Shown one piece after another: positions 45,537-64,000 of a DNA stretch of 64,000 nt. A program made the translations under genes and the position numbers. Under the pieces are notes generated by a model. That model worked only from the letters and a program-made list of their open reading frames with translations, made no database searches and was not told where the DNA came from. Numbering within the stretch: position 1 is the stretch's first letter; the number at the start of each line of letters is the position of its first letter. Location: contig NZ_JACNMO010000003.1 of assembly GCF_020622345.1 (NCBI RefSeq), forward strand, positions 62,001 to 126,000. Direction: 5' to 3'. The DNA is from Roseobacter weihaiensis (GTDB taxonomy: Bacteria > Pseudomonadota > Alphaproteobacteria > Rhodobacterales > Rhodobacteraceae).

Positions 45537-45600
45537 GAATGTCCCTACCCTCTCCCGTTTTTCGTTTCGAAGCACTGACGTGAAATTTTTTAGTTGACTG

Positions 45601-45618
45601 AATTATGAATTCATAATT
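45601..45618. promoter_or_regulatory. Perfect 18-base palindrome in the divergent locus C promoter region
   Basis: AATTATGAATTCATAATT is exactly self-complementary and lies between the divergent flavoprotein and aminotransferase genes. Size and symmetry suit a GntR dimer, so the FCD regulator at 41970-42653 is the likely binder. Confidence 0.65.
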
Positions 45619-45677
45619 ACGTTTTGACAACATCTAATCGCGCCAACCAGACGGCGCTTGTGGGAGGAATAGTTTCG

Positions 45678-46865: not shown

Positions 46866-46898
46866 TGCCCGGGAGGGGGCGTAAAGGGAGGAAGAACC

Positions 46899-47879: not shown

Positions 47880-47886
47880 CCCACTC

Positions 47887-47914
47887 GGCAGGGGGCCAAT
47901 CAGGGTCCCCTGCC
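47887..47914 (+). terminator. Stem-loop behind dctP
   Basis: Arms GGCAGGGG and CCCCTGCC pair perfectly around a 12-base loop and are followed by TTT. Located between dctP and dctQ, it probably attenuates transcription or protects the dctP message so that the binding protein is in excess. Confidence 0.6.
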
Positions 47915-47980
47915 TTTCGGAACTCAACCGTGACACCGTCTTAGCATGTCACCTGGACCGATGTCCGGCGGGGAATTCTT

Positions 47981-49803: not shown

Positions 49804-49810
49804 CCACCCT

Positions 49811-49839
49811 GGCCTGCCCGTCACTCCCGCGGGCGGGCC
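49811..49839 (+). terminator. Stem-loop behind dctM
   Basis: Arms GGCCTGCCCG (49811-49820) and CGGGCGGGCC (49830-49839), one G-T pair in ten, with a 9-base loop. No long T-run; it may reduce read-through into the GlcG-like gene. Confidence 0.45.
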
Positions 49840-49862
49840 ACTTAACGACTGAAAGACACACC

Positions 49863-50282
49863 ATGAACCTCGACCTTGCCAACGCCCTCATCTCTGCCGC
49901 ACTGAACCATCGCCGCGCGCACGGAATGAGACCGCTCACAATTGCAGTGATTGATGCAGGCGGGCATTTGGTGGCCTTGCAGCGCGAGGACGGCACCAGC
50001 AATCTCCGCGCTGAGATTGCCCAAGGGAAAGCCAAAGGGGCCGTCGCAATGGGCCTGGGCTCACGCGCACTCTACAACCGCGCACAGGAGCAGCCATATT
50101 TTATCAACGCGATGAATGCGCTGAACGGAGGAAGCCTCGTCCCAGTTCCCGGCGGTGTCTTGATCCTGCGCGAGGTTATGCTGATCGGGGGGATCGGAAT
50201 CACCGGCGACAGCTCAGACAATGACGAAGCCTGCGCGATGGCTGCCATCGAAGCGCAGGGATTGGTCGCCGAGCCCGGATAA
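49863..50282 (+). CDS. GlcG/HbpS-family protein
   Basis: 139 residues from the ATG at 49863. The sequence ALISAALNHRRAHGMRPLTIAVIDAGGHLVALQREDG is characteristic of GlcG/Haem_degrading proteins, and GGVLILREVMLIGGIGITGDSSDNDEACA is the conserved C-terminal half. GlcG-like genes occur in glycolate and other small-acid operons; the molecular role is not settled, with heme binding or small-molecule isomerisation proposed. It ends the locus C plus-strand operon and supports a hydroxyacid substrate for the locus. Confidence 0.8.
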   Translation: MNLDLANALISAALNHRRAHGMRPLTIAVIDAGGHLVALQREDGTSNLRAEIAQGKAKGAVAMGLGSRALYNRAQEQPYFINAMNALNGGSLVPVPGGVLILREVMLIGGIGITGDSSDNDEACAMAAIEAQGLVAEPG

Positions 50283-51235: not shown

Positions 51236-52543
51236 CTACTTCGACGGCAGCCAAAGTGCCAACTGCGGAAAGGCTATGAGCAGTGTCACCAGCAGGAGCG
51301 AGCAAAAGATGAATGGAAATGCAGAGCTGTAGATCTCGCGCATCGTTGTGCCCGGCGGAGCGACGCCTTTCATCACAAACAGCAGCAACCCGAAGGGCGG
51401 TGTTGTAAAGCTGATCTCCAGCGCGAGGAGCATGATCAGCCCGAACCAGATCAGATCGAAGCCAAGTGTCTGTGCCAGCGGGAAAAAGATTGGTACCGTC
51501 AGAAGCATGATCGAAATCTGTTCCATGAACATGCCCAGCAGGAGAAGCACTGCGAACATGACCAATAGCATCACCAGAGGTGCCAGTTCGAACGAGATCG
51601 CCCAATTTACCAATCCGCGCGAGGCGCCAGAGAAGGCGAGCAGTTGGCTGAAGGTGGCCGAGCCGAACACGATGAGATAGGCCATCAGCGTGACACGCAG
51701 AGCGCCTGTGATGGACTTGCGCATGGCCTCGGAAGTCAGGCAGCGGAAGACAGCGGCCAGAATCATCACGCCTAGCGCACCAAAGGCGGCTGCCTCGGAC
51801 GGGGTGACGATGCCGCGGATCATCATGATGATGATGACCACCATCACGCCGACCATGGGCACGACCTCGGTCAGGAAAAGGCCGAGTTTACTGGCGAACG
51901 ACATGGGCGGCACGTCGTACGCAGGGGCGGCGGAAGGATCGCGTTTGGTCTGAAGCCAGATTGTGGCGATATAGAAAATGGCCAGTATCAGCCCTGGGAT
52001 GACGCCCGCGATCAAAAGTCCGGCGACGTCGATTTGCGCCAGTGTTGCCAAAAGCACCGCAAGGGCCGAGGGCGGGATGATGATGGCGAGACCGCCGGTG
52101 CCGAGGATGGGACCGATGCTCATGTGGGATTTGTAGCCGCGCCTTTGCATCTCGGGCACCATCAGCGAGCCGAGGAGTGCGGTTGAGCCCATCGAGGACC
52201 CCGAGAGGGTCGAAAAGGCAGTGCCGCCCAGCACCGTGACATAGCTCAGCCGTCCCGGCAGGCGGCCCAGCAGCTTGTCGATGGCGTTGAACATGCGCCC
52301 GCCAAGGCCGGTGTGGAAGAAGATCTCACCCATCAGCAAAAACAGCGGGATCGGCATCAGCGCGTATTTCGTCAGCGCACCCCAGCCGTTGTTCAGCAGT
52401 GTCGAGACGCCGCGCTCGCCCCCCATGAACACCCATGCGCCGATAATGTTTGCGGCCAAGAAAGCCAGCGCCACCGGCATGCCCGCGGCCATCAGGAACA
52501 AGATTGCGCCCAGCAGGAGCGCGAGCGCCTCGAACCACTCCAC
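51236..52543 (-). CDS. dctM: TRAP transporter large permease (DctM), locus D
   Basis: 435 residues from a GTG at 52543 that shares a base with the dctQ stop; the frame is open further upstream, inside dctQ. About twelve membrane segments, with GRLSYVTVLGGTAFSTLSGSSMGSTALLGSLMVPEMQRRGY, GGLAIIIPPSALAVLLA and FTTPPFGLLLFVMKGVAP. It belongs to a different DctM subgroup from the locus C protein (TTPPFG in place of QTPPVA), hinting at a different acid substrate. Confidence 0.87.
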   Translation of the reverse strand: MEWFEALALLLGAILFLMAAGMPVALAFLAANIIGAWVFMGGERGVSTLLNNGWGALTKYALMPIPLFLLMGEIFFHTGLGGRMFNAIDKLLGRLPGRLSYVTVLGGTAFSTLSGSSMGSTALLGSLMVPEMQRRGYKSHMSIGPILGTGGLAIIIPPSALAVLLATLAQIDVAGLLIAGVIPGLILAIFYIATIWLQTKRDPSAAPAYDVPPMSFASKLGLFLTEVVPMVGVMVVIIIMMIRGIVTPSEAAAFGALGVMILAAVFRCLTSEAMRKSITGALRVTLMAYLIVFGSATFSQLLAFSGASRGLVNWAISFELAPLVMLLVMFAVLLLLGMFMEQISIMLLTVPIFFPLAQTLGFDLIWFGLIMLLALEISFTTPPFGLLLFVMKGVAPPGTTMREIYSSAFPFIFCSLLLVTLLIAFPQLALWLPSK

Positions 52544-53049
52544 TATTCGTGTATCCCTGCTTCGCCGCTGTGCATAAGTTTTTCGCCGAAGACGAAGCGC
52601 GAGAACTCGAACGCCATCATGCCGAAGCAAAGCGGGAAGGTCACCGTCAACAGCCAGCGCGGATAGTAGTAGGCGCGGACGTCGTAGTCGGCGCGTTCGA
52701 TGTTGGTCAGCATGAGTTCGGCGCCTTTCCAGGCCAGGATCGCCGAGACGACGACGCAGGCAAACGCCACGGTGCGGCTGACCACCGCTCGCGCGCCGTC
52801 TGGCAAAGCGGCGGTGACCAGTTCGATGTGAACGTGTCCCTTTTCACGAACTAGCCAAGGCGCGCCGAGCATTGTCATGTAGAGAATCCCGTATTCGGCG
52901 GAGGTGAAAAGCCAGGCGAAGGGCTGAATCCCGGCGTTGCGCATAGCGACCGATAGGATCACCGAAACCATCAACCAAACCAGCGTCGCTCCGGCCACGA
53001 AGGCCATCGCATAGAGCAATGCTGTGTATGCTCGCGAGAGAGTTTGCAC
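52543..53049 (-). CDS. dctQ: TRAP transporter small permease (DctQ), locus D
   Basis: 168 residues with four hydrophobic segments, including YTALLYAMAFVAGATLVWLMVSVIL and GILYMTMLGAPWLVREKGHVHIELV, the last containing the helix-2 to loop motif of DctQ. It follows dctP by about 80 bases and is coupled to dctM. Confidence 0.85.
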   Translation of the reverse strand: MQTLSRAYTALLYAMAFVAGATLVWLMVSVILSVAMRNAGIQPFAWLFTSAEYGILYMTMLGAPWLVREKGHVHIELVTAALPDGARAVVSRTVAFACVVVSAILAWKGAELMLTNIERADYDVRAYYYPRWLLTVTFPLCFGMMAFEFSRFVFGEKLMHSGEAGIHE

Positions 53050-53131
53050 TCGGCTGTCCCTTCGTCGCTGGACCCGAGCGGTGTGTGACCGCTCCGATGG
53101 AGGCCCCGGATCAGGTCCGGGCAGCCTCGCG

Positions 53132-54145
53132 TTACTGCGCGGCTTCGAGATCGTAGAATAGCTCGATCAGCTTGTCATAGTTGCCAAGCCCGCCGGGCTG
53201 GCCTTCCATGACTTCGCGCATCCGCTCCCACGTCTTTTCGCGTGCAGCGGCAAGGTAGTTGGCCCTGGCGTCGCCTTCCAGTTCGATGGCGGTCATGCCA
53301 GCGGCGTCAAGGGCGGCGAAGTCGGCGTCTTTCTTGGCCTGGAGCGCCTCGACCGAGTCCTTCTCGTGCTGGATCGCAACATCCTGAAGAATGGTTTTTG
53401 CCTCATCGCTGAGAGAATTCCATCGTTCGAGATTCACGATCACGCCAAGGTCGGTCGAGAAGAAGCAGGGCTCGATCCTGTAGTTCAGGAATTCGTTCCA
53501 CTTCAGATCAATCAGCCCAATTTGGGTCCAGCCTGTGGCGTCCACCACCCCGCGCTGTAGGGCCGAGTAGACCTCGCCTGTCGGCAGGTCGATCACCTGC
53601 GCGCCGAGGTAGTTGGTGAAGAATGCATTGTAGACGGCATTGCCGCGTAGTTTCAGGCCCTCGACCTCGAGGTTTCCGTTGGCGTCGAAGGTCGGTTCGT
53701 TCCGGGTCCAGAGGTTGTAGCAGACTCCCGAATCCATCCAGCCGAGATACTTCAAACCCATCTTTTCCTGGTGGATCTGGTCAATCAATTCCGTGCCGCC
53801 ATTCTGGCGGGTTTCGACCGCCGTCAGGTTGGAGGTCACAAGCGCGTCCTTTTCAGGCAGGGCGGCGGCATAAAAGGACCCCGGTGTGTAAACCATGTCC
53901 ACGATGCCGTCGCGCACCGCGTCGGGCTGCTGGAACATGCCGATGGCTTCCGGGCCACCGCGCACGTCGATCTGGATAAAGCCTTCGCCTGCCGCGTTTA
54001 CCTTGTCGACGAAGCTGAGAAAGCTTTGGGTGTAAATAAGGGTCTCGGGGAAGGCGTGAACCGCCGAAATGGTCTCTTCGGCTTTGGCCGCGCCTCCGAG
54101 AGCAAGTGCGGCAGCGAGGATGCCGCCCTGTGTGTAGTGTCTCAT
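53132..54145 (-). CDS. dctP: TRAP transporter substrate-binding protein (DctP), locus D
   Basis: 337 residues with a signal peptide to about residue 22 (GGAAKAEE). ISAVHAFPETLIYTQSFLSFVDKVN, VEGLKLRGNAVYNAFF and RGVVDATGWTQIGLIDLKWNEF mark a DctP-type binder of the YiaO-related branch. The usual binding Arg lies at LKLRGN. The gene lies between the LeuCD-like genes and dctQM in one minus-strand operon, so the imported acid is probably the substrate or a downstream intermediate of the locus D enzymes. Confidence 0.86.
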   Translation of the reverse strand: MRHYTQGGILAAALALGGAAKAEETISAVHAFPETLIYTQSFLSFVDKVNAAGEGFIQIDVRGGPEAIGMFQQPDAVRDGIVDMVYTPGSFYAAALPEKDALVTSNLTAVETRQNGGTELIDQIHQEKMGLKYLGWMDSGVCYNLWTRNEPTFDANGNLEVEGLKLRGNAVYNAFFTNYLGAQVIDLPTGEVYSALQRGVVDATGWTQIGLIDLKWNEFLNYRIEPCFFSTDLGVIVNLERWNSLSDEAKTILQDVAIQHEKDSVEALQAKKDADFAALDAAGMTAIELEGDARANYLAAAREKTWERMREVMEGQPGGLGNYDKLIELFYDLEAAQ

Positions 54146-54247
54146 TCAGTCTTCCTCCACGTTGCGAGGCCGCTTTTGCCTTTGCCCCAATTTTGTTGCG
54201 GCACCCACCCGGGATGCTCTTGGTTTGCGCCCCCCTTGAGGCGCGGT

Positions 54248-54844
54248 TCAATCCGATGCCGTTGGGAAGACCCATGGCTCAGAGAAAGCTCGGCAGGCCG
54301 CGAAGGCCGCGATTTTGTCCGCGTGCTGGCGGGTCAGGTCGATGTCGTCCCAGCCGTTGATCAGTTTCGTGCGCCAGCTTTCGTCAACATCAAATGGAAA
54401 GGTCCGGTCATCGAGTGCGATGGTGCGGGTGTTGAGGTCTATGGTGATCTCTGCTGGTTCGGCCGCCAAAAATGCGGCCAGTTCGGCCTGGGCGTCGTCA
54501 GACACCCGCGCCGGGAGAAGGCCGTTGTTGACGGCGTTGGCCGCAAAGATGTCGCCAAAGCTGGGCGCGATCACGGCGCGGAAGCCAGCGTCGAACAGCG
54601 CATAAACCGCCGCTTCGCGCGATGAGCCGGTGCCGAAGTTGCGACCGGCCACCAGTATCGAAACGTCCCGGTGGCGGTTGAGGGGGAATTCCGGATCACT
54701 CCGCAGATCGTGCAGCAGGAATTGGCCGTAGCCCTCAGCTCGGGGCGTCGACATGAAGCGCGCCGGGATCAGCTGGTCGGTGTCAATATTGTCGAGCCCC
54801 AAATGCACCGCGCGGCCTTGATGTATTGTCCATCCCGCCATCAC
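54248..54844 (-). CDS. LeuD-like small subunit of an aconitase-family hydro-lyase
   Basis: 198 residues. The swivel domain features HLGLDNIDTDQLIPARFMST, VAGRNFGTGSSREAAVYAL and FGDIFAANAVNNGLLPARV are all present, as in LeuD. It pairs with the LeuC-like subunit, whose stop it overlaps by 4 bases. Placement inside a transporter and hydantoinase locus, away from leuA or leuB, points to a catabolic paralogue such as a maleate, citraconate or dimethylmaleate hydratase rather than leucine synthesis. Confidence 0.85.
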   Translation of the reverse strand: MMAGWTIHQGRAVHLGLDNIDTDQLIPARFMSTPRAEGYGQFLLHDLRSDPEFPLNRHRDVSILVAGRNFGTGSSREAAVYALFDAGFRAVIAPSFGDIFAANAVNNGLLPARVSDDAQAELAAFLAAEPAEITIDLNTRTIALDDRTFPFDVDESWRTKLINGWDDIDLTRQHADKIAAFAACRAFSEPWVFPTASD

Positions 54845-56244
54845 GCCGCCCTCTCGCCAAGAAATCGGCGTACATCGATAATCGTTCCAGTCAGTGCCGC
54901 TGCTGCAACCATGGCAGGCGACATCAGATGTGTGCGCGCGCCCGGGCCCTGTCGGCCCCGGAAGTTGCGGTTGGTAGAACTGGCGCAGCGCTTGCCTGCG
55001 GCCACCAGGTCACCGTTCATGCCAACGCACATGGAGCAGCCCGAGGCGGCCCAGGTCAGCCCGGCAGTCTTGAAAACATCGTCGAGGCCCTCTTGCTCGG
55101 CCTGTGCTTTGACTTGTGCCGAGCCGGGGGCCACTAGCCCCGGCACCTTGGCGCGCTGACCGGCCAGAACGGCAGCAGCGGCGCGCAAGTCCTCGATACG
55201 CCCGTTGGTGCAAGAGCCGATGAAGACCTGATCTATGGGTGTGCCTTCAAGCGGGCGACCCGGCTGCAACCCCATATAGTCAAGCGCGGCATCAATGGCC
55301 TTGGCTTTCTCTGGTGCCACCGCAGTGGGGTCGGGGAGTGTTGCGGTGACCGGCAGAGCCTGCTCAGGGCTTGTGCCCCAGGTGACAGTTGGGGCGATCT
55401 CGGCCGCGTCGAAGGTGACGTCTCGGTCGAAAATGGCACCCTCGTCGCTGGCGAGGGTCGACCAAGTGGTGACGGCTGCCTCCCAATCTAAATCGGGCGC
55501 GAAAGGACGCTCTTTCAAGTAGTCGAAAGTCGTTGCATCGGGCGCGATCATTCCCAGCCGCGCGCCCCCTTCTATGGAGAGATTGCACAGCGTCATGCGC
55601 CCTTCCATCGACAGCGCCTGAACAGCAGACCCGGCGTATTCGACCGCGTGTCCCTGAGCGCCGCCGGTGCCCAAGGCAGCGATCCAATTTAACGCGATGT
55701 CTTTGGCGGTTACACCCGGACCAAGGGTGCCGTTCAACGTGATCCGCATGGTTCTGGGCTTGCGTTGCCAGACCGTCTGAGTCGCCAGGACATGCGCGAC
55801 TTCGGTCGCTCCAATACCAAACGCCAAGGCACCAAAGGCGCCATGGGTTGAGGTGTGGCTGTCACCGCAATTGATCAGCAAGCCTGGCAGCGTCAACCCT
55901 TGCTCGGGGCCAATTACGTGCACGATGCCCTGATCCTGATCGTGAAGATCGAATAACCGCAAACGATGCGCCTGCGCGTTTTTGCGCAAAGTGTCGATCA
56001 TTCCGGCTATCTTCGGATCGGCAATTCTCGCCCTGTCGCGCGTCGGGGCATAATGATCGACCACGGCGAAGGTCAGGTCGGGGCGGGCGACCTGCAGGTC
56101 ACGATCAGTCAACTTGGCGAAGGCATGGTGCGAGCCCTCGTGCACCAGATGCCGATCCACCCACAGAAGCGAAATGCCGTCCTCGCGGCACAGAATCTCA
56201 TGCGCGCGCCAAAGCTTGTCGAGCATAGTCCGGCGCTTGCTCAT
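54841..56244 (-). CDS. LeuC-like large subunit of an aconitase-family hydro-lyase
   Basis: 467 residues from the ATG at 56244 overlapping the GntR stop. The [4Fe-4S] cysteines lie in GSCTNGRIEDL and SGCSMCVGMN; INCGDSHTSTHGAFGALAFGIG and TNRNFRGRQGPGARTHLMSP are the conserved LeuC substrate-pocket segments. The heterodimer would add water to, or remove it from, a substituted maleate/malate. Sequence closeness to leucine-pathway LeuC is high, so the true substrate must be judged from context. Confidence 0.87.
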   Translation of the reverse strand: MSKRRTMLDKLWRAHEILCREDGISLLWVDRHLVHEGSHHAFAKLTDRDLQVARPDLTFAVVDHYAPTRDRARIADPKIAGMIDTLRKNAQAHRLRLFDLHDQDQGIVHVIGPEQGLTLPGLLINCGDSHTSTHGAFGALAFGIGATEVAHVLATQTVWQRKPRTMRITLNGTLGPGVTAKDIALNWIAALGTGGAQGHAVEYAGSAVQALSMEGRMTLCNLSIEGGARLGMIAPDATTFDYLKERPFAPDLDWEAAVTTWSTLASDEGAIFDRDVTFDAAEIAPTVTWGTSPEQALPVTATLPDPTAVAPEKAKAIDAALDYMGLQPGRPLEGTPIDQVFIGSCTNGRIEDLRAAAAVLAGQRAKVPGLVAPGSAQVKAQAEQEGLDDVFKTAGLTWAASGCSMCVGMNGDLVAAGKRCASSTNRNFRGRQGPGARTHLMSPAMVAAAALTGTIIDVRRFLGERAA

Positions 56245-57041
56245 CCCGCGGCTCCCGCCTGACCGATGGCCGGTTCCCAATGTCGCGCGCGGCCTTCACC
56301 GACGCGCGCCAAGGGCATCTCAAGCCGAAACATGTCAGGCCGGTAGAGCGCGGCGAGGTACTCAACCCCATTGCCTTGCTCATCCCGGACCACGCGCTTG
56401 AGCGACAGCAGCGCCGAGCCAACCGCAACACCTAGCGCTTCCGCAACATCGGGCGCGGCCAACGTGGCTGACACCGATTGATGCGCTTCCTTGATCTGCA
56501 CGCCGCTCCGCTCGAGCAGTTTGAAAAGCGGCGTAGTAGCCAGATCGTGCTCGGAATAGTTTTGCGCAATGCGCGCAGGTACATAGGTCGTCAGATGCGA
56601 GAAAGGCACGCCATCGGCCAACCGAACCCGGACGGCGATCTGCACTTTCTCTGCTCTGTCCAAACCTATCGATGCGGCGACCACATCAGGGGCGTGGTCG
56701 TAGGAAAAGGACAGAAGCTGGGCCGTGGTCGACTGCCCCATCTCGACCAGTTGCGGCATCAGCGTGTTGAAGTCCATCGCGGCCCGGCGACCAGCTTGCC
56801 GGCTGCGGCGCACGGTTGTGCCACTGCCTGCACGGCGTTCAATCAGACCAGATTGTGACAGCGCATCCAGGGCGCGGCGTACGGTGACACGGGACACGCC
56901 GAAGCTGACGGCCAGCTTCTGTTCGCCGGGAAGCGACTCGCCATCGGCCAACCGACCTTCGGTGATCTGATCGCGCAACGACAGATAGACGCGCTGCGCC
57001 TTGGCGCCTTCGGGCAAGGTCGGTGTTACGATTGCGTCCAT
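56241..57041 (-). CDS. GntR-family regulator (HutC/UTRA subfamily)
   Basis: 266 residues from the ATG at 57041 behind GAGGGA; the frame is open further upstream. The winged helix (QRVYLSLRDQITEGRLADGESLPGEQKLAVSFGVSRVTVRRALDALSQSGLI) is followed by a UTRA ligand domain (LLSFSYDHAPDVVAASIGL, GVPFSHLTTYVPARI). UTRA regulators respond to small molecules including imidazole/hydantoin-like and amino-sugar compounds. It is the first gene of the minus-strand operon and divergent from the hydantoinase operon, so it is expected to control both via 57042-57183. Confidence 0.87.
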   Translation of the reverse strand: MDAIVTPTLPEGAKAQRVYLSLRDQITEGRLADGESLPGEQKLAVSFGVSRVTVRRALDALSQSGLIERRAGSGTTVRRSRQAGRRAAMDFNTLMPQLVEMGQSTTAQLLSFSYDHAPDVVAASIGLDRAEKVQIAVRVRLADGVPFSHLTTYVPARIAQNYSEHDLATTPLFKLLERSGVQIKEAHQSVSATLAAPDVAEALGVAVGSALLSLKRVVRDEQGNGVEYLAALYRPDMFRLEMPLARVGEGRARHWEPAIGQAGAAG

Positions 57042-57128
57042 CGATTCCCTCATTCGGAGCAAAGCAGAGCCTAGTGATACCCCTAGAAAATGCAAGAGAT
57101 TGTACTTCATTTCGACGATGATTCTGCT

Positions 57129-57150
57129 TAACAATGAAACACAATTGTTA
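57129..57150. promoter_or_regulatory. Inverted repeat in the divergent locus D promoter region
   Basis: Arms TAACAAT (57129-57135) and ATTGTTA (57144-57150) pair perfectly around 8 bases, within an AT-rich 60-base patch between the divergent operons. A GntR/UTRA operator is likely. Confidence 0.55.
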
Positions 57151-57183
57151 TTACAGATAATACAAATGAATGGAGAGTGTACC

Positions 57184-57750
57184 GTGCCAATCGTCGAGCT
57201 GCATGTAATCGAAGGCTATTCTCCGAAAGAAAAACAACGGCTTGGCGCAGCGCTGACCGAGGCGGTGCGATTCGTGGTGCCCGCGGCAGCCGAGCTGGTG
57301 ACAGTGCTGATCCACGACCTTCCTGCACAGGATTACTACCGCGGTGGGACCACGCGCAGCCCGGCCCCCGCGCGATCGGATCCGGCCCAACTCGTGCGCG
57401 ATTTCCTTACCGCGATGGAGGCGCGCGACCTTGCTCGCGCTCAGTCTATGCTGGGTGAAGGCTTCATGATGGCCTTTCCCGGTTCAGGTCCGATGACCTC
57501 GTTGCAGGAACTGATCAACTGGGCCAAGCCTCGGTACAATCACGTCGCCAAAACCTATCAAGGCTTCGAGGCGATGCAGGGGCTCGGTGATGTTGCGGTC
57601 GTCTATTGCCGCGGCACCTTGTCGGGTGAATGGCCCGACGGTTCCCCTTTTGACGGCATCCGCTTTATTGACCGGTTCGAGGTCATGGACGGGCGCATCA
57701 CTCGCCAAGAGGTCTGGAACGACATTGCAGAATTAAAGGCGCGCAAATGA
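57184..57750 (+). CDS. 4-oxalocrotonate tautomerase-like domain fused to a SnoaL/NTF2-like domain
   Basis: The GTG at 57184 is chosen because GGAGAG lies 6-7 bases upstream and it puts Pro directly after the initiator, as tautomerases need a free N-terminal Pro. Residues 2-60 (PIVELHVIEGYSPKEKQRLGAALTEAV) are a 4-OT-type beta-alpha-beta unit. Residues from about 67 (LVRDFLTAMEARDLARAQSMLGEGFMMAFPG ... FIDRFEVMDGRITRQEVWND) are a SnoaL-like fold used by hydrolases and isomerases. It is the first gene of the hydantoinase operon, overlapping hyuB by 4 bases. Keto-enol or double-bond isomerisation of a pathway intermediate is inferred. Confidence 0.75.
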   Translation: MPIVELHVIEGYSPKEKQRLGAALTEAVRFVVPAAAELVTVLIHDLPAQDYYRGGTTRSPAPARSDPAQLVRDFLTAMEARDLARAQSMLGEGFMMAFPGSGPMTSLQELINWAKPRYNHVAKTYQGFEAMQGLGDVAVVYCRGTLSGEWPDGSPFDGIRFIDRFEVMDGRITRQEVWNDIAELKARK

Positions 57751-59441
57751 CCGAAATCGACCCGATCACGCTGTCGGTTCTTGCCGGCCGAATGGAACAG
57801 ATCGCCGACGAGATGGATGCCACGCTGTTCCGCGCGGCCTTTAACCCGATCATCGCCGAGGCGCATGACGCCAGCCACGGGCTGTATCACGCCACCACTG
57901 GCGACACCTTGGTGCAGGGTAAATCCGGCCTGCCGATCTTCGTCGGTGTGATGTCGTTCGCGGTGAAAGCGGTAATCGAAAAAGCCGCCGCTGACGGCGA
58001 TCTGGAAAACGGTGACATCTACATCTTCAACGATGCACACATCGGCGGCACACATCTAAGCGACATGCGCCTGGTACGACCCTACTTCCACAACGGTAAG
58101 CTGTTCTGTTTCCTCGCGTCGGTTGGCCATTGGCACGATGTCGGCGGCGCGGTACCCGGCAATTACAATCCGGGCGCGACCGAGGTGTTTCAGGAGGCCT
58201 TCGTGCTGCCGCCCGTGAAACTGGCACGGAAGGGGACCGTCAATCAGGACATCATCGACATTCTCTTGCGCAATACCCGGTTGCCGCAATCGGCGATGGG
58301 AGACCTGAATGGCCAGCTTGGCGCGCTTGATCTGGGTGTCCAGCGGATGGATGAGTTGCTGACCGAATATGGCGGCGATACGATTACGGCCGCACTTGAA
58401 GCTTTGGGCAACCGGGCCGAAGCATTGATGCGGGCCGAACTGGCCGAGCTGCCGGACGGACGATGGGAGGCCGAGGATTTCCTCGACAACGACGGTATCA
58501 TCGATGAAGCACTGAAGATCCGGGTGGCTTTGGAGATCAAAGACGACCGGATGGTGCTGGATTTTTCGGGTTCTTCGCCGCAATGCGCGGGGCCGGTCAA
58601 CATCGCGCTGCCCACCACGGCCGCGGCGGCCTATGTCGCCATCAAGCATGTGTTCCCAGCCCTTCCCGCCAACGCGGGCGTAATGCGCCCCATTGAGGTG
58701 ATCGTGCCTGAAGGGTCGCTTCTTTCCGCCGAGTTTCCCGCTCCGACGGGCGGCTACACTGAGACCATCCTGCGCATGATCGACGTGGTCTTTTCGGCCT
58801 TCGCGCAAGCTGCGCCAGACCGGGTTGTGGCCAATGCTTACGGCACGATCAATGCGCTTTCGATTGCAGGAAAGCGGTCGGACGGCACGGCTTGGGTCAT
58901 GTTTTCGTTCTACGGTGGCGGACACGGCGGTTCGGTCGAAAGCGATGGGTTGAACCACGGCAATGCGCCAATCTCGACGGCGACCATTCCGCCGATGGAG
59001 ATCCTTGAAGCGGCTTATCCGGTAATGTTCCGCACCTGGGCTTTACGGCCCGATTCGGGCGGTGCAGGCGCGCACCGTGGCGGGATGGGTGCCGTCTATG
59101 AGATTGAAGTGCTTGAGGAAAATGGTGCGGAGGCATTTCTCTTCGGCGAGCGCGGGCGGTTTGCTCCGAAAGGGATTGTCGAGGGTGGCGATGGAGCCAT
59201 GAACCATTTCACCTTTGAACAATCGGACGGTTGGCAAGCACCGCCGTTGGCCTCGAAAATGCGCGGGATCAAGCTGACACAAGGGCAGGCGGTGCGGCTG
59301 GAAACACCGGGCGGCGGCGGATACGGCCCGGCGGCGGCACGCGAGGCGCGCGCGGTGGCACGGGATGTTGCGCGTGGTCTGGTCAGCGCCGATCAGGCCG
59401 ACACCGACTATGGAACCGCCTGGCGCGAGGTGACGGTATGA
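57747..59441 (+). CDS. hyuB: Hydantoinase B / oxoprolinase-family subunit
   Basis: 564 residues. Recognisable HyuB segments are DPITLSVLAGRMEQIADEMDATLFRAAFNPIIAEAHDAS, NDAHIGGTHLSDMRLVRPYF, FCFLASVGHWHDVGG and the glycine-rich C-terminal GERGRFAPKGIVEGGDGAMN plus ETPGGGGYG. It works with HyuA in ATP-dependent opening of cyclic amides (hydantoins, 5-oxoproline) or in related ketone carboxylases. Without a third small subunit, the hydantoinase/oxoprolinase type is favoured over acetone carboxylase. Confidence 0.88.
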   Translation: MTEIDPITLSVLAGRMEQIADEMDATLFRAAFNPIIAEAHDASHGLYHATTGDTLVQGKSGLPIFVGVMSFAVKAVIEKAAADGDLENGDIYIFNDAHIGGTHLSDMRLVRPYFHNGKLFCFLASVGHWHDVGGAVPGNYNPGATEVFQEAFVLPPVKLARKGTVNQDIIDILLRNTRLPQSAMGDLNGQLGALDLGVQRMDELLTEYGGDTITAALEALGNRAEALMRAELAELPDGRWEAEDFLDNDGIIDEALKIRVALEIKDDRMVLDFSGSSPQCAGPVNIALPTTAAAAYVAIKHVFPALPANAGVMRPIEVIVPEGSLLSAEFPAPTGGYTETILRMIDVVFSAFAQAAPDRVVANAYGTINALSIAGKRSDGTAWVMFSFYGGGHGGSVESDGLNHGNAPISTATIPPMEILEAAYPVMFRTWALRPDSGGAGAHRGGMGAVYEIEVLEENGAEAFLFGERGRFAPKGIVEGGDGAMNHFTFEQSDGWQAPPLASKMRGIKLTQGQAVRLETPGGGGYGPAAAREARAVARDVARGLVSADQADTDYGTAWREVTV

Positions 59442-61501
59442 GCGGGCAAATGATCGGCGTCGATGTCGGTGGTACGTTTACGGACGTCTTCGTGCTGAAC
59501 GAGGCCGCCGGCTCGGCCAGCGTTGCCAAAGTGCCCACGACCCGACCCGACCAGTCGGTTGGGTTTCTTGACGGCATCGGGCGCGAGGTCGACACACTTA
59601 GCGAGGTGGCGGTGGTCGTTCATGGCACGACGGCCGGAACGAACGCCCTGCTGGAGCGCAAGGGTGCCAAGACCGGTGTCATCTGCACCGCGGGGTTGCG
59701 CGACGTTCTGGAAATGCGCCGCCGCGACCGGCCTCGCACCTGGGGGCTACGCGGCGATTTCGAACCGGTCGTTGACCGGCGTGACCGGCTGGAAGTGCAA
59801 GAGCGCACACTGGCCGATGGCAGCATTCGCACGCCGGTCGATCTTGACGCCGTGCGCATGGCAGCTCGGCAGTTGTGCGATCAGGGTTGCAAGGCCGTCG
59901 CGGTGCTGTTCGCCAATGCCTATGCCAATCCGGAAAATGAGGCTGCCGCCGTGGCCGCTGTGCGCGAGGTCTGGCCCAATCCGCATGTCTCTGCGTCTTC
60001 CGAGATATTGCCCGAGATACGCGAGTTCGAGCGGTTCTCGACCACTGCGCTGAATGCCTATTTGCAACCCGAAGTTTCGGGCTATCTGGGACGTCTGGAA
60101 ACGGCCCTGACCGAAGGCGGGTTCGACGGCGAGTTCATGATCGTGCAGTCAAACGGCGGCGTGATGACGGTGGATACTGCCTGTCGCCTGCCGGTGCGCA
60201 CCGCCTTGTCCGGCCCGGCTGCGGGCGTGATTGCGGCGGGATATATCGCCGGTGTCGCGGGCTTTGATAACGTCATCACCGGCGATATGGGCGGCACCAG
60301 TTTCGACGTGTCCCTGATCGCGGGCGGGCAATCCATTCTGTCGCCTCAAACCTCGATCGATTTCGGCATGGTGGTCCGCAACCCGATGATCGAGATTACC
60401 ACCATCGGAGCGGGCGGTGGCTCGATCGCCTGGGTCGACAAGGGAGGGCTTTTGAACATCGGCCCCGAAAGCGCCGGGTCTGATCCCGGCCCTGTGGCCT
60501 ACGGGCTGGGCAATGACCGGCCGACGGTGACGGACGCAAATGTGGTGCTGGGCCGGATTGATCCCGATAACCCCATTGGCGGCAAACTTGACCGGCTGGA
60601 TATCGAAGCCGCCGGGCGGGCCATCGACGCCCATGTGGGCGCGCCGCTGGGCCTCGACACGGTCGCAGCGGCCGAGGCCATTCTGCGGGTCGCCAATTCG
60701 CGGATGGCCGGTGCAATCCGGCTCGTGTCCATCGAACGGGGCTTCGATCCAAAGCGTTTTGCCTTCATGCCATTCGGCGGTGGCGGCGCGCTGCATGCAG
60801 GCGCGATGTTGGCCGAGGTCGGGATCGCGCGCGCGATTGTGCCTCGCTATCCCGGCGTTACCTCTGCCATGGGCTGCGTGATCGCCGACATGCGGCAGGA
60901 CTTCGTGCAGACCGTCAACACGCTGGTCGACACGCTGGATGAAGCCGCATTGGGTGACTTCATGCAGGCTAATACCGATGACGGGATGGCACTGCTGGAA
61001 GCCTCCCGCACCAGTTTTGAGGCACGCGAGGCGTCGTTCACGCTCGATATGGCCTATGTCGGGCAAACGCACACCGTGTCGGTGCCGCTTGATGTCACGA
61101 TGGTGGACGACAAGGTAACGCCGCCCTCTAAGGCCGAGATCGAGGTGGCGTTCGACACTACCTATCAGGCCACCTTTGGGCGGCTTCTTCAGAACGGCAC
61201 GCGGCGGATATTGAATCTGCGCACTGCGGTCACCGGCAAACGGCCCAAGTTCGATCTGGCCACGCTAGCACCAGGTACCACTGGAAGCGTCGCTCCAACC
61301 GCCACCCGGAAAGTTCACTTCGGCAACGTCTGGCTTGAGACCGCTATCCATGATCGGCTGTCGCTGCCCGTCGGCGCCGTGATCAACGGTCCGGCCATTC
61401 TAACCCAACCCGACACAACGGTGCTGATTGAACCGGGCCTCGCCGGAAAGGTCGACCGTTTTGGCAACACCATCATCGAACCGGTGGAGGGAGACGCATG
61501 A
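59438..61501 (+). CDS. hyuA: Hydantoinase A / oxoprolinase-family subunit
   Basis: 687 residues from the ATGA-overlapping start. N-terminal nucleotide motif GVDVGGTFTDVFVLN, VVVHGTTAGTNALLERKGAKTGVI, then VITGDMGGTSFDVSLIAGG and IGAGGGSIAWVDKGG of the ASKHA core, and FMPFGGGGALHAGAMLAEVG. These fit the ATP-binding HyuA subunit that phosphorylates the ring carbonyl. The substrate is likely a lactam, imide or hydantoin connected to the downstream lyase. Confidence 0.88.
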   Translation: MSGQMIGVDVGGTFTDVFVLNEAAGSASVAKVPTTRPDQSVGFLDGIGREVDTLSEVAVVVHGTTAGTNALLERKGAKTGVICTAGLRDVLEMRRRDRPRTWGLRGDFEPVVDRRDRLEVQERTLADGSIRTPVDLDAVRMAARQLCDQGCKAVAVLFANAYANPENEAAAVAAVREVWPNPHVSASSEILPEIREFERFSTTALNAYLQPEVSGYLGRLETALTEGGFDGEFMIVQSNGGVMTVDTACRLPVRTALSGPAAGVIAAGYIAGVAGFDNVITGDMGGTSFDVSLIAGGQSILSPQTSIDFGMVVRNPMIEITTIGAGGGSIAWVDKGGLLNIGPESAGSDPGPVAYGLGNDRPTVTDANVVLGRIDPDNPIGGKLDRLDIEAAGRAIDAHVGAPLGLDTVAAAEAILRVANSRMAGAIRLVSIERGFDPKRFAFMPFGGGGALHAGAMLAEVGIARAIVPRYPGVTSAMGCVIADMRQDFVQTVNTLVDTLDEAALGDFMQANTDDGMALLEASRTSFEAREASFTLDMAYVGQTHTVSVPLDVTMVDDKVTPPSKAEIEVAFDTTYQATFGRLLQNGTRRILNLRTAVTGKRPKFDLATLAPGTTGSVAPTATRKVHFGNVWLETAIHDRLSLPVGAVINGPAILTQPDTTVLIEPGLAGKVDRFGNTIIEPVEGDA

Positions 61502-62118
61502 GCGATCCGACCACTTGGGACCTGTCGCGCACAGCGCTTTTGACAATCGACCTGCAAAACGACTTTCTGCATCCGGAGTGTGCTTATGGACGCGCTGGCC
61601 AAACCGACGAGGCGATCACGGCGCTTCCCGACCGCATCGCACCGCTTGCTGCCGCCTTGCGCACGCGGGGCGGGCGGTATTTCTCTGCACAGTTCACGCT
61701 TGTACCCGACCGCGACGGAGAGCCATTGATCGCGCCTCATCTGAAAACCCTGCGCCCGTTTCTGGGCCGGGGGGATTTTGTTCCGGGTGGCTTCGGGCAC
61801 TCTTTGGTGGATACGCTGGCTCCTGCAGACTTCACCATTGAAAAGGTGGCCTATTCGGCCTTCTACCAAACCCGACTGGAGTACATCATGCGTGCAACCG
61901 GGATCGAAACCCTGATCGTCGGCGGCATTGTGACAAACGGGGGCGTCGCTTCGACGCTCAGGGACGCGCATCTGCGCAACATCGATACCGTGATGCTCAC
62001 CGATGGCTGCGCGGCCTTTCGTCAAGAAGTCCATGATGCAACGCTGCTCTCTCTCGGCACGGTCACGCATCAGATGAGCTGCGCTGATGCTTTGAGCTGG
62101 TTGGAGGCCGCGACATGA
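61498..62118 (+). CDS. Isochorismatase-fold hydrolase lacking the usual catalytic Cys
   Basis: 206 residues with the family's Asp (LLTIDLQNDFLHPE, Asp18) and Lys (TIEKVAYSAFYQT, Lys116). In the third conserved segment, usually VxTNxCVExTxRDA, the sequence is GGIVTNGGVASTLRDAH, so the nucleophilic Cys is replaced by Gly149. Amidase members (nicotinamidase, N-carbamoylsarcosine amidase, maleamate amidase) need that Cys; isochorismatases proper do without it. Its place right after HyuA suggests hydrolysis or binding of the ring-opened product by a non-covalent mechanism. It overlaps its neighbours by 4 bases at each end. Confidence 0.8.
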   Translation: MSDPTTWDLSRTALLTIDLQNDFLHPECAYGRAGQTDEAITALPDRIAPLAAALRTRGGRYFSAQFTLVPDRDGEPLIAPHLKTLRPFLGRGDFVPGGFGHSLVDTLAPADFTIEKVAYSAFYQTRLEYIMRATGIETLIVGGIVTNGGVASTLRDAHLRNIDTVMLTDGCAAFRQEVHDATLLSLGTVTHQMSCADALSWLEAAT

Positions 62119-62972
62119 CATTGCGCGCCCGGCTCGCGCAAAAGGAAATCCTGGTCGCCCCTGGCGTCTACGACGGGTTGACAGCAACGCTGGCCGAGGC
62201 GGCGGGGTTTCAGGCGCTCTATCTGTCGGGGGCGGCGGTGGCCTATACTCGACTGGGGCGCCCCGACATCGGGCTCAGCACTATGTCGGAAATGGCCGAC
62301 ACCATGGCGCTGATCGCCGACCGCGTCGAGCTGCCGGTGATCATCGACGCCGATACCGGCTTTGGCAACGCATTGAACGCGCAACGCACAATGCGGGTCT
62401 ACGAGCGCGCCGGTGCCGCGGCCTTGCAGGTCGAAGACCAAAGCCATCCGAAGCGCTGCGGGCATCTGACAGACAAGTCCCTGATCCCCGCGACCGAGAT
62501 GGTAGGCAAGATCGCTGCGATGGCCGACGCACGCGCTCGCGACACCTTGATCATCGCACGCACCGACGCGATCGCCGTCGAGGGGATTTCCGCCGCTATG
62601 GATCGGGCCGAGGCCTATATTGAGGCAGGTGCGGATGTGCTGTTCATCGAGGCACCCCAGACCCGCGCGCAACTGGAGGACGTCGCCAAGACCTTCGCCG
62701 TACGCATCCCGCTGCTGGCGAACATGGTCGAAGGCGGTGCAACCCCGATCACTGGATCGGATGATCTGGAAAGCCTGGGCTTTTCCATCGTGATCTTTCC
62801 CGGCGGCATCGTCCGGGCGCTCGCCCGCACTGGCGAAGCCTACTATCAAAGCCTCGCCGCCCACGGCTCAAACACGCGGTTCCAGGACCGGATGTTCGAT
62901 TTCGACGGGTTGAACGAAGCTATCGGCACCACCGAGATGCTGACCCTCGGCAAACGCTATGACGGCAACTGA
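62115..62972 (+). CDS. Isocitrate lyase/PEP mutase-family C-C lyase (2-methylisocitrate or dimethylmalate lyase-like)
   Basis: 285 residues. The metal-binding VIIDADTGFGN, the mobile active-site loop DQSHPKRCGH with catalytic Cys115 (lyases carry KKCGH; mutases lack the Cys), IIARTDAIAVEG and VLFIEAPQTR are all present. The family cleaves 2-hydroxy diacids into pyruvate or glyoxylate plus a second acid; dimethylmalate lyase and methylisocitrate lyase are members. With the LeuCD-like hydratase in the divergent operon it would cleave the malate-type product. Confidence 0.86.
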   Translation: MTLRARLAQKEILVAPGVYDGLTATLAEAAGFQALYLSGAAVAYTRLGRPDIGLSTMSEMADTMALIADRVELPVIIDADTGFGNALNAQRTMRVYERAGAAALQVEDQSHPKRCGHLTDKSLIPATEMVGKIAAMADARARDTLIIARTDAIAVEGISAAMDRAEAYIEAGADVLFIEAPQTRAQLEDVAKTFAVRIPLLANMVEGGATPITGSDDLESLGFSIVIFPGGIVRALARTGEAYYQSLAAHGSNTRFQDRMFDFDGLNEAIGTTEMLTLGKRYDGN

Positions 62973-64000
62973 CGTCAGCGTCTCGGCACCTCCTGACCGT
63001 TTCGACCTATCGGTCGAGACACTGATCATCGGTGCGGGCGCCTGCGGGTTGGTCGCTGCCCTTTCAGCTGTGGAGACAGGCCGAGAGGTGCTGGTGGTCG
63101 AGGCCGACGAGGTGCCACGCGGCTCGACGGCATTGTCAGCGGGACTGATCCCGGCGGCTGGTACAAGGGTTCAACGTGCCGCCGGCATCGACGATACACC
63201 CGAGAGGTTCGCCGCCGACATCCAGGCCAAGGCGCATGGCGAGAACGACCCCTCACTGGCCGAACTGCTGGCCCATGGCGCAGCAGAGGTCATCGACTGG
63301 CTAAGCGACACCCACCACCTGCCGTTTTCCGTTGTGACCGATTTCGACTATCCCGGCCATTCCCGTCACCGAATGCACGGATTGCCCAGCCGCTCAGGCA
63401 CGGAACTGATCGACGCGCTGCGTAGTGCTGCCGAAACCGCAGGGATCGATATCGTCTGTGAAAGCCGTGCGACAACGCTTTACCATGCCGAAGACCGGAT
63501 CGCCGGTGTTGGCGTCACCCGCCCCGACGGCGGGGTCGAGACCATAGGATGCGACCGGCTGATCCTCGCTTGCAACGGGTTCGGCGGCAATCGCGACCTC
63601 GTCGCACAACACATGCCGGACATCTCCGAGGCGGTTTGGTTCGGTCATGACGGCAACCGCGGCGAGGCCGTGCTTTGGGCGGACGCCATCGGAGCCAAGA
63701 CCCGGCACCTCGGGGCCTATCAGGGGCACGGAAATGTCGCGCATCCACATGGCATCCTGATCACATGGGCAGTGATCACCCAAGGCGGGATACAGGTGAA
63801 CCACTACGGTGAGAGGTTTTGGAACGAAGCGCAGGGTTATTCGGAAGCGGCGCGTGCCGTGCTGGCCCAACCCGGCGGCGAAGCTTTCGCGATCTTCGAC
63901 GAACGCATCGCCGGGATCGCGCGACAATTCGAAGACTTCAAGCGCGCAGAGGCCGCTGGAGCGGTACGGACCGACGACACAATCGAGGGCCTCGCTCGGG
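62959..64000 (+). CDS. FAD-dependent oxidoreductase (fumarate reductase/tricarballylate dehydrogenase-like), truncated by the window edge
   Basis: 347 codons visible from the ATG at 62959, which overlaps the lyase end by 14 bases. The N-terminal FAD site is TLIIGAGACGLVAALSAVETGREVLVVEAD, followed by GSTALSAGLIPAAG. LILACNGFGGNRDL is the second FAD-binding stretch of fumarate-reductase-type flavoproteins, and RHRMHGLPSRSGTELI lies in the substrate cap region. It probably inserts or reduces a C=C bond next to carboxylates. The C-terminal catalytic Arg lies beyond the window. Confidence 0.83.
   Translation, partial: MTATDVSVSAPPDRFDLSVETLIIGAGACGLVAALSAVETGREVLVVEADEVPRGSTALSAGLIPAAGTRVQRAAGIDDTPERFAADIQAKAHGENDPSLAELLAHGAAEVIDWLSDTHHLPFSVVTDFDYPGHSRHRMHGLPSRSGTELIDALRSAAETAGIDIVCESRATTLYHAEDRIAGVGVTRPDGGVETIGCDRLILACNGFGGNRDLVAQHMPDISEAVWFGHDGNRGEAVLWADAIGAKTRHLGAYQGHGNVAHPHGILITWAVITQGGIQVNHYGERFWNEAQGYSEAARAVLAQPGGEAFAIFDERIAGIARQFEDFKRAEAAGAVRTDDTIEGLAR

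What the first reader, a model, noticed from the sequence alone, without database searches (positions are those of the whole stretch)
51236..64000. Candidate new pathway: cyclic amide or imide to substituted maleate, malate and C-C cleavage
Seen: HyuAB, an isochorismatase-fold protein, a tautomerase fusion, a LeuCD-like hydro-lyase, an isocitrate-lyase-family lyase and a fumarate-reductase-like flavoprotein under one UTRA regulator with a TRAP importer. Known: in nicotinate fermentation a LeuCD-like dimethylmaleate hydratase and a PEP-mutase-family dimethylmalate lyase act in sequence. Inference: a lactam, hydantoin or (alkyl)maleimide-type ring is opened by HyuAB, deamidated, isomerised or desaturated to a substituted maleate, hydrated, then cleaved to pyruvate plus a short acid. 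Maleimides from tetrapyrrole breakdown would be an attractive marine source, but this is speculative.
Basis: partly seen in the sequence, partly recalled or inferred. Interest (0 to 1): 0.8.

Follow-up and report, generated by a model that had tools for sequence, protein, structure and literature searches.

The report
Candidate hematinic acid breakdown gene cluster
A conserved set of about twelve bacterial genes looks like an undescribed route for eating a ring-shaped nitrogen compound, most likely hematinic acid (a stable end fragment of heme and chlorophyll), by opening the ring and splitting the carbon chain into pyruvate and glutarate.

Summary
All named genes are present, on two divergent operons of overlapping genes; the flavoprotein ends at 64332, beyond the window. 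The order recurs in 56 of 80 fetched loci.

New evidence points to the leaving acid. In four lineages genes for glutarate use (glutaryl-CoA dehydrogenase and/or a succinate-glutarate-type CoA-transferase) are built into the cluster. A five-membered imide yielding pyruvate plus glutarate is a methyl, propionate-substituted maleimide: hematinic acid.

The hydro-lyase slot is filled by LeuCD, DmdAB-type or PrpD-type enzymes in relatives. The lyase has a dimethylmalate-lyase-type motif and keeps the methyl-pocket positions of PrpB.

Two corrections. The isochorismatase-fold protein has Gly in place of the catalytic Cys in 80 of 80, so it is not an ordinary amidase. The flavoprotein has Tyr at both fumarate-reductase arginine positions. 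The roles of these two and of the tautomerase are inferred. Nothing was tested biochemically.

The parts
51236..52630 (-). TRAP transporter large membrane subunit (DctM); the listed ORF, true start not settled
   Evidence: Pfam DctM 256 bits
52543..53049 (-). TRAP transporter small membrane subunit (DctQ)
   Evidence: Pfam DctQ 66 bits
53132..54145 (-). TRAP solute-binding protein (DctP); an Arg in the motif L-[KR]-L-R-G-N aligns with an Arg of 4mnc
   Evidence: Pfam DctP; nearest solved relative 4mnc/4mni, 173 bits, next best 55 bits; the four commonest forms of the motif, all with the Arg, cover 59 of 60 sequences
54248..54844 (-). LeuD-like small subunit of a maleate-type hydro-lyase
   Evidence: NCBIfam leuD 153 bits, cut-off 116
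54841..56244 (-). LeuC-like large subunit, three Fe-S cysteines kept in 71 of 71
   Evidence: NCBIfam leuC 613 bits, cut-off 560; separate LeuC elsewhere in the genome
56241..57041 (-). GntR/UTRA regulator
   Evidence: Pfam GntR and UTRA; start
57147..57164 (.). Candidate operator, consensus TGTATTA-N4-TAATACA, 2 mismatches here
   Evidence: 55 of 68 homologous divergent promoters have a site with at most 2 mismatches, 0 of 1360 shuffled sequences; not enriched genome-wide
57184..57750 (+). 4-OT-like tautomerase domain fused to a SnoaL-like domain
   Evidence: Pfam; Pro in 66 of 66, the 4-OT Arg11 and Arg39 positions lost in 66 of 66
57747..59441 (+). HyuB, hydrolase subunit of an ATP-dependent lactamase/hydantoinase-type enzyme
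   Evidence: Pfam Hydantoinase_B 570 bits; metal-ligand-like motifs kept
59438..61501 (+). HyuA, ATP-binding subunit
   Evidence: Pfam Hydantoinase_A; N-methylhydantoinase 7hk5 429 bits; nucleotide-binding motifs kept
61498..62118 (+). Isochorismatase-fold protein with Gly149 in place of the catalytic Cys
62115..62972 (+). PEP-mutase/isocitrate-lyase superfamily C-C lyase, proposed 2-alkyl-malate lyase
62959..64000 (+). FAD-dependent oxidoreductase; the gene runs on to 64332, outside the window

Best explanation
The locus encodes uptake and complete breakdown of a five-membered cyclic imide with a propionate and a methyl side chain, most likely hematinic acid (3-methyl-4-carboxyethyl-maleimide) and perhaps its saturated form. 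Proposed steps: the TRAP importer brings in the carboxylated imide; HyuAB opens the ring with ATP; the isochorismatase-fold protein completes removal of the nitrogen as ammonia, giving 2-methyl-3-carboxyethyl-maleate; the LeuCD-type hydro-lyase hydrates it to the one-carbon-longer homologue of 2-methylisocitrate; the lyase splits this into pyruvate and glutarate; glutarate goes through glutaryl-CoA to crotonyl-CoA. The flavoprotein probably desaturates the succinimide form, as from reduced chlorophyll rings, to the maleimide. Shown by sequence: gene content, conservation, enzyme families, swaps of the hydro-lyase, and built-in glutarate genes in four lineages. Inferred: every reaction, the substrate, and the roles of the isochorismatase-fold protein, flavoprotein and tautomerase-SnoaL protein. 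My separate estimates: imide to maleate to malate to cleavage, about 0.8; glutarate as product, about 0.75; hematinic acid itself, about 0.5.
For: Fixed order in 56 of 80 loci. Glutarate genes inside the cluster: Tistrella operon HyuB-HyuA-IsoC-dehydrogenase-CoA transferase-LeuC-LeuD in 3 genomes, the dehydrogenase matching glutaryl-CoA dehydrogenase 1sir at 620 bits and the transferase best matching the succinate-glutarate model (533 bits, below the 750 cut-off; next model 295); transferase also in L136; both genes after the flavoprotein in L078, the dehydrogenase in L066. Relatives of the transferase (60-63%) lie directly beside GCDH, away from this cluster, in G576 and G379. The 3 Tistrella genomes hold a further GCDH elsewhere. 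Hydro-lyase swaps in 33 distant loci with HyuB, HyuA and IsoC: DmdAB-type 17, LeuCD 8, PrpD-type alone 2, none counted 6 (subfamilies tested for a few, PrpD). Lyase: NMVEGG, close to dimethylmalate lyase NMVEHG, not PrpB NITEFG, and Phe/Ile/Pro at the methyl-pocket positions, each 81 of 81. HyuAB motifs kept. Hematinic acid is a product of heme and chlorophyll breakdown (passages of PMC10343206 and PMC12860425). Carbon balance: C8 imide = C3 + C5 + NH3.
Against: No experiment. Of 65 window-type loci with at least 1300 bases held after the flavoprotein, only 2 carry a glutarate gene there. NCBIfam does not name the Tistrella dehydrogenase: its best models are general acyl-CoA dehydrogenases (235 of 600 bits) and the one GCDH model shown reaches 215 of 470. 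Among structures the transferase is nearer to 4ed9 (unnamed role, 422 bits) and to 10uh, named formyl-CoA transferase (356), than to SUGCT 9br6 (342). The lyase has Val where PrpB has Thr212, a possible carboxylate contact, so the propionate contact is unidentified. The isochorismatase-fold protein lacks the amidase nucleophile. One search found no flanking family in 4 or more loci that would tie the cluster to heme or bilin cleavage; I did not search the flanks for such families. No imide activity of HyuAB enzymes was seen: no word beginning with 'imide' in the caprolactamase paper (succinimide and the like not searched). One variant (L158) has CoA transferases, an HMG-CoA-lyase-family gene and an arylmalonate-decarboxylase-family gene, with only a 43% relative of the lyase some 4.6 kb before its first gene, or more by another count of the cluster's start.
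Confidence: 0.5

Rival explanations
1. The same chemistry on another alkyl-maleimide or dialkylmaleate (dimethyl-, methylethyl- or methylvinyl-), giving pyruvate plus propionate or butyrate, as at the end of nicotinate fermentation.
For: DmdAB-type hydro-lyases in 17 of 33 distant loci and the dimethylmalate-lyase-type motif; loss of PrpB Thr212 in the lyase.
Against: Glutaryl-CoA dehydrogenase and/or a succinate-glutarate-type CoA transferase are built into four lineages. Propionate- or butyrate-activating genes were not searched for.
Confidence: 0.15
2. The imide has a propionate but no methyl group; the lyase is a homoisocitrate lyase giving glyoxylate plus glutarate.
For: Glutarate genes; the DmdAB-type large subunits score well on homoaconitase-family models.
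Against: The lyase keeps Phe, Ile and Pro at PrpB positions 186, 234 and 236 in 81 of 81 (that these form the methyl pocket is recalled); no common natural imide of this kind is known to me.
Confidence: 0.1
3. A six-membered imide or lactam (glutarimide type) is opened directly to glutarate, and the hydro-lyase and lyase serve another purpose.
For: The HyuAB family acts on valerolactam and caprolactam (search listing and passages); glutarate genes.
Against: The lyase is in 27 of 33 distant loci and a hydro-lyase in 27 of 33, which a direct route would not need.
Confidence: 0.08
4. A hydantoin or N-carbamoyl route: HyuAB opens a hydantoin and the isochorismatase-fold protein is a carbamoylase.
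For: Best HyuA structure match is N-methylhydantoinase; the isochorismatase-fold model matches RutB and biuret hydrolase among others; two Asp/Glu/hydantoin-racemase-family genes in some relatives.
Against: Catalytic Cys replaced by Gly in 80 of 80; does not explain the hydro-lyase and lyase.
Confidence: 0.06
5. Leucine-pathway and methylcitrate-cycle paralogues gathered by chance, doing their textbook reactions.
For: LeuC and LeuD pass the IPM dehydratase cut-offs.
Against: Second LeuC elsewhere; lyase fails PrpB cut-off; fixed cassette and hydro-lyase swaps.
Confidence: 0.03

Closest known systems
Nicotinate fermentation end steps (2,3-dimethylmaleate hydratase DmdAB and 2,3-dimethylmalate lyase), recalled
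   Same: Maleate-type hydratase followed by a PEP-mutase/isocitrate-lyase-superfamily lyase giving pyruvate
   Different: ATP-dependent ring opening instead of an enamidase; glutarate rather than propionate as likely co-product; LeuCD or PrpD-type enzymes can stand in for DmdAB
Methylcitrate cycle lower half (hydratase, PrpB)
   Same: Same superfamily of lyase, same residues or a conservative change at the methyl-pocket positions, PrpD-family genes in some relatives
   Different: Below the PrpB equivalog cut-off, NMVEGG instead of NITEFG; proposed substrate one CH2 longer
ATP-dependent lactamase family (caprolactamase, N-methylhydantoinase, 5-oxoprolinase)
   Same: Subunit layout, nucleotide and metal motifs
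   Different: Under half of the caprolactamase equivalog cut-offs; proposed substrate is an imide
Maleamate/ureidoacrylate/biuret amidohydrolases (isochorismatase fold)
   Same: Fold, Asp and Lys of the catalytic set
   Different: Catalytic Cys replaced by Gly, as recalled for true isochorismatases

Membership tests
ATP-dependent lactamase/hydantoinase family (HyuA/HyuB) | Phosphate-1, phosphate-2 and adenosine motifs in HyuA | tested here: met
   DVGGTFTD in 77 of 78 (one gapped), GD[MVI]GGTSFD in 78 of 78, GS[NDTS]PGP in at least 77 of 78 (only the four commonest forms were listed); motifs from passages of PMC8453981
ATP-dependent lactamase/hydantoinase family (HyuA/HyuB) | Metal ligands Asp, His, Asp, His in HyuB | tested here: met
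   EAHDASH 75 of 75, GGTHL[SN]DM 75 of 75, GHWHD[VLM]GG 75 of 75; equivalence judged by motif, not by structure
Caprolactamase equivalog (NCBIfam) | Curated score cut-off 1000 | tested here: not met
   HyuA 493, HyuB 318 bits
Isochorismatase-fold cysteine hydrolases (RutB, biuret hydrolase, maleamate amidase) | Catalytic Cys | tested here: not met
   Gly at that column in 80 of 80 and in 7 of 7 other sequences aligned
Isochorismatase-fold cysteine hydrolases (RutB, biuret hydrolase, maleamate amidase) | Asp and Lys of the triad | tested here: met
   [IV]DLQND in 80 of 80, EK[VI] in 80 of 80
3-isopropylmalate dehydratase | Curated score and Fe-S cysteines | tested here: met
   leuC 613 of 560, leuD 153 of 116; three Cys 71 of 71
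3-isopropylmalate dehydratase | Role in leucine synthesis | tested here: inconclusive
   A second, higher-scoring LeuC (785 bits) is elsewhere in the genome, so the role is not needed here
2-methylisocitrate lyase PrpB | Curated score cut-off 354 | tested here: not met
   296 bits
PEP-mutase/isocitrate-lyase superfamily lyase | K-[RK]-C-G-H loop | tested here: met
   81 of 81
Fumarate reductase (soluble flavoprotein type) | Two catalytic/substrate arginines | tested here: not met
   Tyr in 73 of 73 and in 72 of 73 (one gap); the His is kept in 73 of 73; residue roles recalled
4-oxalocrotonate tautomerase | Pro1, Arg11, Arg39 | tested here: not met
   Pro 66 of 66; Arg11 position Tyr 66 of 66; Arg39 position Thr 64, Ala 1, Met 1 of 66; positions recalled
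Glutaryl-CoA dehydrogenase (gene in relatives, not in the window) | Close match to solved enzymes of that name | tested here: met
   620 bits to 1sir; nine of the ten best chains are named glutaryl-CoA dehydrogenase (4w9u is named acyl-CoA dehydrogenase), then a fall to 243 bits. L078 68%, L066 67% identical to it
Glutaryl-CoA dehydrogenase (gene in relatives, not in the window) | Curated NCBIfam cut-off | tested here: not met
   The one GCDH model listed (Desulfo type) 215 bits, cut-off 470; best model a general acyl-CoA dehydrogenase, 235 of 600
Succinate-glutarate CoA-transferase (gene in relatives) | Curated NCBIfam cut-off 750 | tested here: not met
   533 bits, by far the best model (next 295)
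Hematinic acid catabolism | Growth on or turnover of hematinic acid | not testable with these tools
   No biochemical data; no paper on it seen in the listings

The most novel reading that the evidence does not exclude
A dedicated, widespread alphaproteobacterial pathway that mineralises hematinic acid, the stable propionate-bearing maleimide left when heme, bilins and chlorophylls are oxidised. It would use three enzyme types not yet described, to my knowledge: an ATP-dependent imidase of the HyuAB family; a Cys-less isochorismatase-fold maleamate hydrolase that exploits the substrate's own carboxylate, through an anhydride, instead of an enzyme nucleophile; and a homo-2-methylisocitrate lyase releasing pyruvate and glutarate.
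Probability: 0.4. Interest if true: 0.9.

Novelty: new variant of a known kind. Interest (0 to 1): 0.75.

Why it matters
Heme and chlorophyll are very abundant pigments, and hematinic acid, one of their ring-cleavage end products, is found even in fossil leaves (passages of PMC12860425). I know of no described bacterial route for consuming it, and the searches listed none in the held library. The HyuB-HyuA-IsoC trio was seen in 24 of 385 sampled genomes of the class, an IsoC relative in 26, and an IsoC relative in 51 of 295 genomes of the family. If true, the last step of tetrapyrrole breakdown becomes directly testable, and a Cys-less isochorismatase family and a LeuCD/lyase pair now annotated as leucine and propionate enzymes gain a function.

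Tried and rejected
Rejected: hydantoin/carbamoylase reading (catalytic Cys missing); leucine or methylcitrate reading (second LeuC; PrpB cut-off not met); fumarate reductase reading of the flavoprotein (both arginines are Tyr). Vinyl-ether or enamine hydrolysis by the isochorismatase-fold protein, as in true isochorismatases, was considered: it would give a ketone, not the dicarboxylate that the lyase needs, but it is not excluded.

Led nowhere: recurrent flanking genes outside the cassette (unlabelled families in 4 or more loci are, by their coordinates, frames antisense to the cassette; my ORF picking could hide real genes); a wider regulon for the operator (4 places in the genome against 5 for the reversed control); a sample of 321 genomes from the class of G379 gave only G379 itself; the ligand of the nearest DctP structure, which I recall as benzoylformate, could not be checked; a guessed accession for a Tistrella replicon was uninformative. 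The structure model of the isochorismatase-fold protein (mean pLDDT 80.8) matches amidases and isochorismatases alike, so it does not decide the reaction.

Rows left out: of 36 distant loci, three (L135, L153, L156) lack HyuB or HyuA in the stretch held and are not in the 33; L135 is cut by a contig end. L104, of the window's type, was not in the 36. L133 and L148 are the same plasmid, and both are in the 33. In that tally a PrpD relative counted only at 40% identity or more and a GCDH or transferase relative only at 50% or more, so L158, with a PrpD-family gene at 26%, stands under 'none'. Of 30 plasmid records found I looked at 5.

Full report
What is there. The stretch 51236-64000 holds two divergent operons. 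Minus strand: GntR/UTRA regulator, LeuC-like, LeuD-like, and a TRAP importer (DctP, DctQ, DctM). Plus strand: a tautomerase-SnoaL fusion, HyuB, HyuA, an isochorismatase-fold protein (IsoC), a PEP-mutase/isocitrate-lyase-superfamily lyase and an FAD protein whose end, at 64332, lies beyond the window. Genes of the plus-strand operon overlap by 4 bases (14 at the last junction), as do LeuC and LeuD. A palindrome of consensus TGTATTA-N4-TAATACA lies at 57147-57164, 19 bases before the tautomerase start codon; 55 of 68 homologous divergent promoters carry it with at most 2 mismatches, against 0 of 1360 shuffled sequences. In the genome as a whole such sites are not enriched.

Conservation. A scan with the lyase found 221 relatives and kept the best 80, by record title mostly roseobacters, with Roseibium/Labrenzia, Cohaesibacteraceae and a few others. 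tblastn found HyuA in 79 of 80, IsoC 79, HyuB 76, LeuC 74, GntR 73, FAD protein 72, LeuD 71, tautomerase 69, DctP 62, with the full order in 56 of 80; many misses are contig ends, and L013/L014 are duplicates. Of the 8 loci without the FAD protein, 7 (L023, L037, L052, L057, L059, L064, L073) have room for it after the lyase and L075 is cut; L057 also lacks HyuB, HyuA and IsoC. IsoC relatives are in 51 of 295 genomes of the family and 26 of 385 of the class, on plasmids as well as chromosomes; another genome of the window's own genus has none. The distribution is patchy, as for a mobile cassette.

Swaps tell the roles. Of 36 more distant loci, 33 hold HyuB, HyuA and IsoC together. In these 33 the hydro-lyase within the stretch is DmdAB/HacAB-type in 17, bacterial LeuCD-type in 8, MmgE/PrpD-type alone in 2, and none counted in 6; the lyase is present in 27 and the FAD protein in 19 (L133 and L148 are the same plasmid). 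NCBIfam puts three large subunits of the DmdAB type in another LeuC subfamily than that of the window and one small subunit in the LeuD/DmdB family, and confirms the MmgE/PrpD family by Pfam. Different LeuC subfamilies and the unrelated PrpD family filling one slot beside the same lyase suggest that a hydration step is part of the pathway. The importer is swapped too: TRAP in the window, a branched-chain-type ABC importer in 15 of the 33 distant loci, TRAP in 1.

The product. In Tistrella the operon reads HyuB, HyuA, IsoC, an acyl-CoA dehydrogenase, a family III CoA transferase, LeuC, LeuD (3 genomes). The dehydrogenase matches glutaryl-CoA dehydrogenase 1sir at 620 bits; nine of the ten best chains bear that name, then the score falls to 243. 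NCBIfam does not name it: general acyl-CoA dehydrogenase models come first, below cut-off. The transferase best matches the succinate-glutarate CoA-transferase model (533 bits, below its cut-off of 750; next model 295); among structures it matches 4ed9 (unnamed role, 422), 10uh (named formyl-CoA transferase, 356) and succinate-hydroxymethylglutarate CoA-transferase 9br6 (342). Its relatives lie directly beside GCDH, away from this cluster, in G576 and G379, which supports the glutarate reading. In the two Tistrella genomes examined the lyase and an FAD protein sit in a second operon with PrpD and two Asp/Glu-racemase-family genes, and all three have a further GCDH elsewhere. A second genus (L136) has the transferase (74% identical) between IsoC and LeuC, with the lyase beside the cluster. 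Two loci with the window's own plus-strand order end with these genes: L078 (Cohaesibacteraceae) has GCDH and the transferase directly after the FAD protein, L066 (Boseongicola) has GCDH there. The other 63 of 65 FAD-protein-bearing loci with at least 1300 bases beyond it show none at 45% identity or more. Four lineages thus attach glutarate degradation to this cassette. GCDH is in 23 of 26 IsoC-bearing class genomes against 217 of 385 overall (p = 0.0003), a weak test because large genomes have more of everything.

From product to substrate. A lyase of this superfamily splits R1-C(OH)(COOH)-CH(R2)-COOH into an oxo acid and R2-CH2-COOH (established knowledge of the family). Glutarate means R2 is CH2CH2COOH. 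The lyase has Phe, Ile, Pro at the PrpB positions 186, 234, 236 that I recall as the methyl pocket (Phe, Leu, Pro in PrpB; 81 of 81), so R1 is probably CH3 and the oxo acid pyruvate. It has NMVEGG where dimethylmalate lyase has NMVEHG and PrpB NITEFG: Gly in place of PrpB Phe214, which may make room for a longer R2, and Val in place of Thr212, which may cost a carboxylate contact. The maleate that yields this malate is 2-methyl-3-carboxyethyl-maleate; its cyclic imide is hematinic acid. The balance closes: C8 imide to C3, C5 and NH3. Hematinic acid is described as a breakdown product of heme, bilirubin and chlorophyll, also from bacterial heme cleavage by E. coli ChuS (passages of PMC10343206; of PMC12860425). 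An Arg of DctP that aligns with one in 4mnc is in the motif's four commonest forms, 59 of 60 sequences, consistent with a carboxylated ligand.

Ring opening. HyuA and HyuB keep the nucleotide motifs and metal-ligand motifs given for caprolactamase (passages of PMC8453981; counts) but fall far below the caprolactamase equivalog cut-offs. An imide substrate is inference; I saw no report of one for this family.

IsoC has TNGG where the amidases have the catalytic Cys (80 of 80; 7 of 7 others), while the Asp and Lys remain. My suggestion, from recalled chemistry, is that alkyl maleamates are cleaved by their own neighbouring carboxylate through an anhydride, so the enzyme needs only acid-base groups; this is untested. 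The FAD protein has Tyr at both fumarate-reductase arginine positions (73 of 73, and 72 of 73 with one gap), so it probably does not act on an open dicarboxylate; desaturating the saturated imide ring would give the cis alkene directly. The tautomerase domain keeps Pro1 but not the two arginines (66 of 66); no step is assigned to it.

Literature. Listings were seen for hydantoinase with dimethylmalate lyase (no paper), hematinic acid or dimethylmaleate with catabolism (12 papers), hematinic acid as carbon source (no paper), hematinic acid or maleimide with seawater or chlorophyll (12 of 14 listed) and GCDH with hydantoinase and isopropylmalate dehydratase (no paper). None of the titles and abstract starts describes such a pathway. 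One search was uninformative: 1505 papers, 10 listed, all matched by the names of bacteria alone. Most subscription papers are not held, so this is not proof of absence.

Verdict. It is a new variant built from known enzyme families.

Noticed in passing
42663-50282: A separate neighbouring set: FAD/Fe-S 2-hydroxyacid dehydrogenase-like protein (970 aa), class V aminotransferase, a second TRAP importer, and a C-terminal stretch (to 50282) that reads like a GlcG/HbpS-type protein (by eye). It may be unrelated to the finding.
   Followed up: partly
L131 14500-15926; L162 and L163 about 12340-13770: Two Asp/Glu/hydantoin-racemase-family genes follow the FAD protein in Neorhizobium and Tistrella versions; they could be maleate-type cis-trans isomerases or racemases of the imide.
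   Followed up: partly
L158 2700-16428; L164: A version in a small, 86% complete genome with a PrpD-family gene, HyuB, HyuA, IsoC, two CoA transferases, an HMG-CoA-lyase-family gene and an arylmalonate-decarboxylase-family gene, as if the lyase step went through CoA esters; a 43% relative of the lyase lies upstream.
   Followed up: partly
L153 9752-10327 and L156 9954-10526: IsoC relatives that lie away from HyuAB, suggesting that the family has other uses.
   Followed up: no
L083 14765-15508: By eye, an IS110-like transposase remnant just after the cluster, outside the window.
   Followed up: no
L131 12610-13101: A 163-residue protein without Pfam or NCBIfam match at the thresholds used, conserved between Neorhizobium and Tistrella next to the FAD protein.
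   Followed up: no
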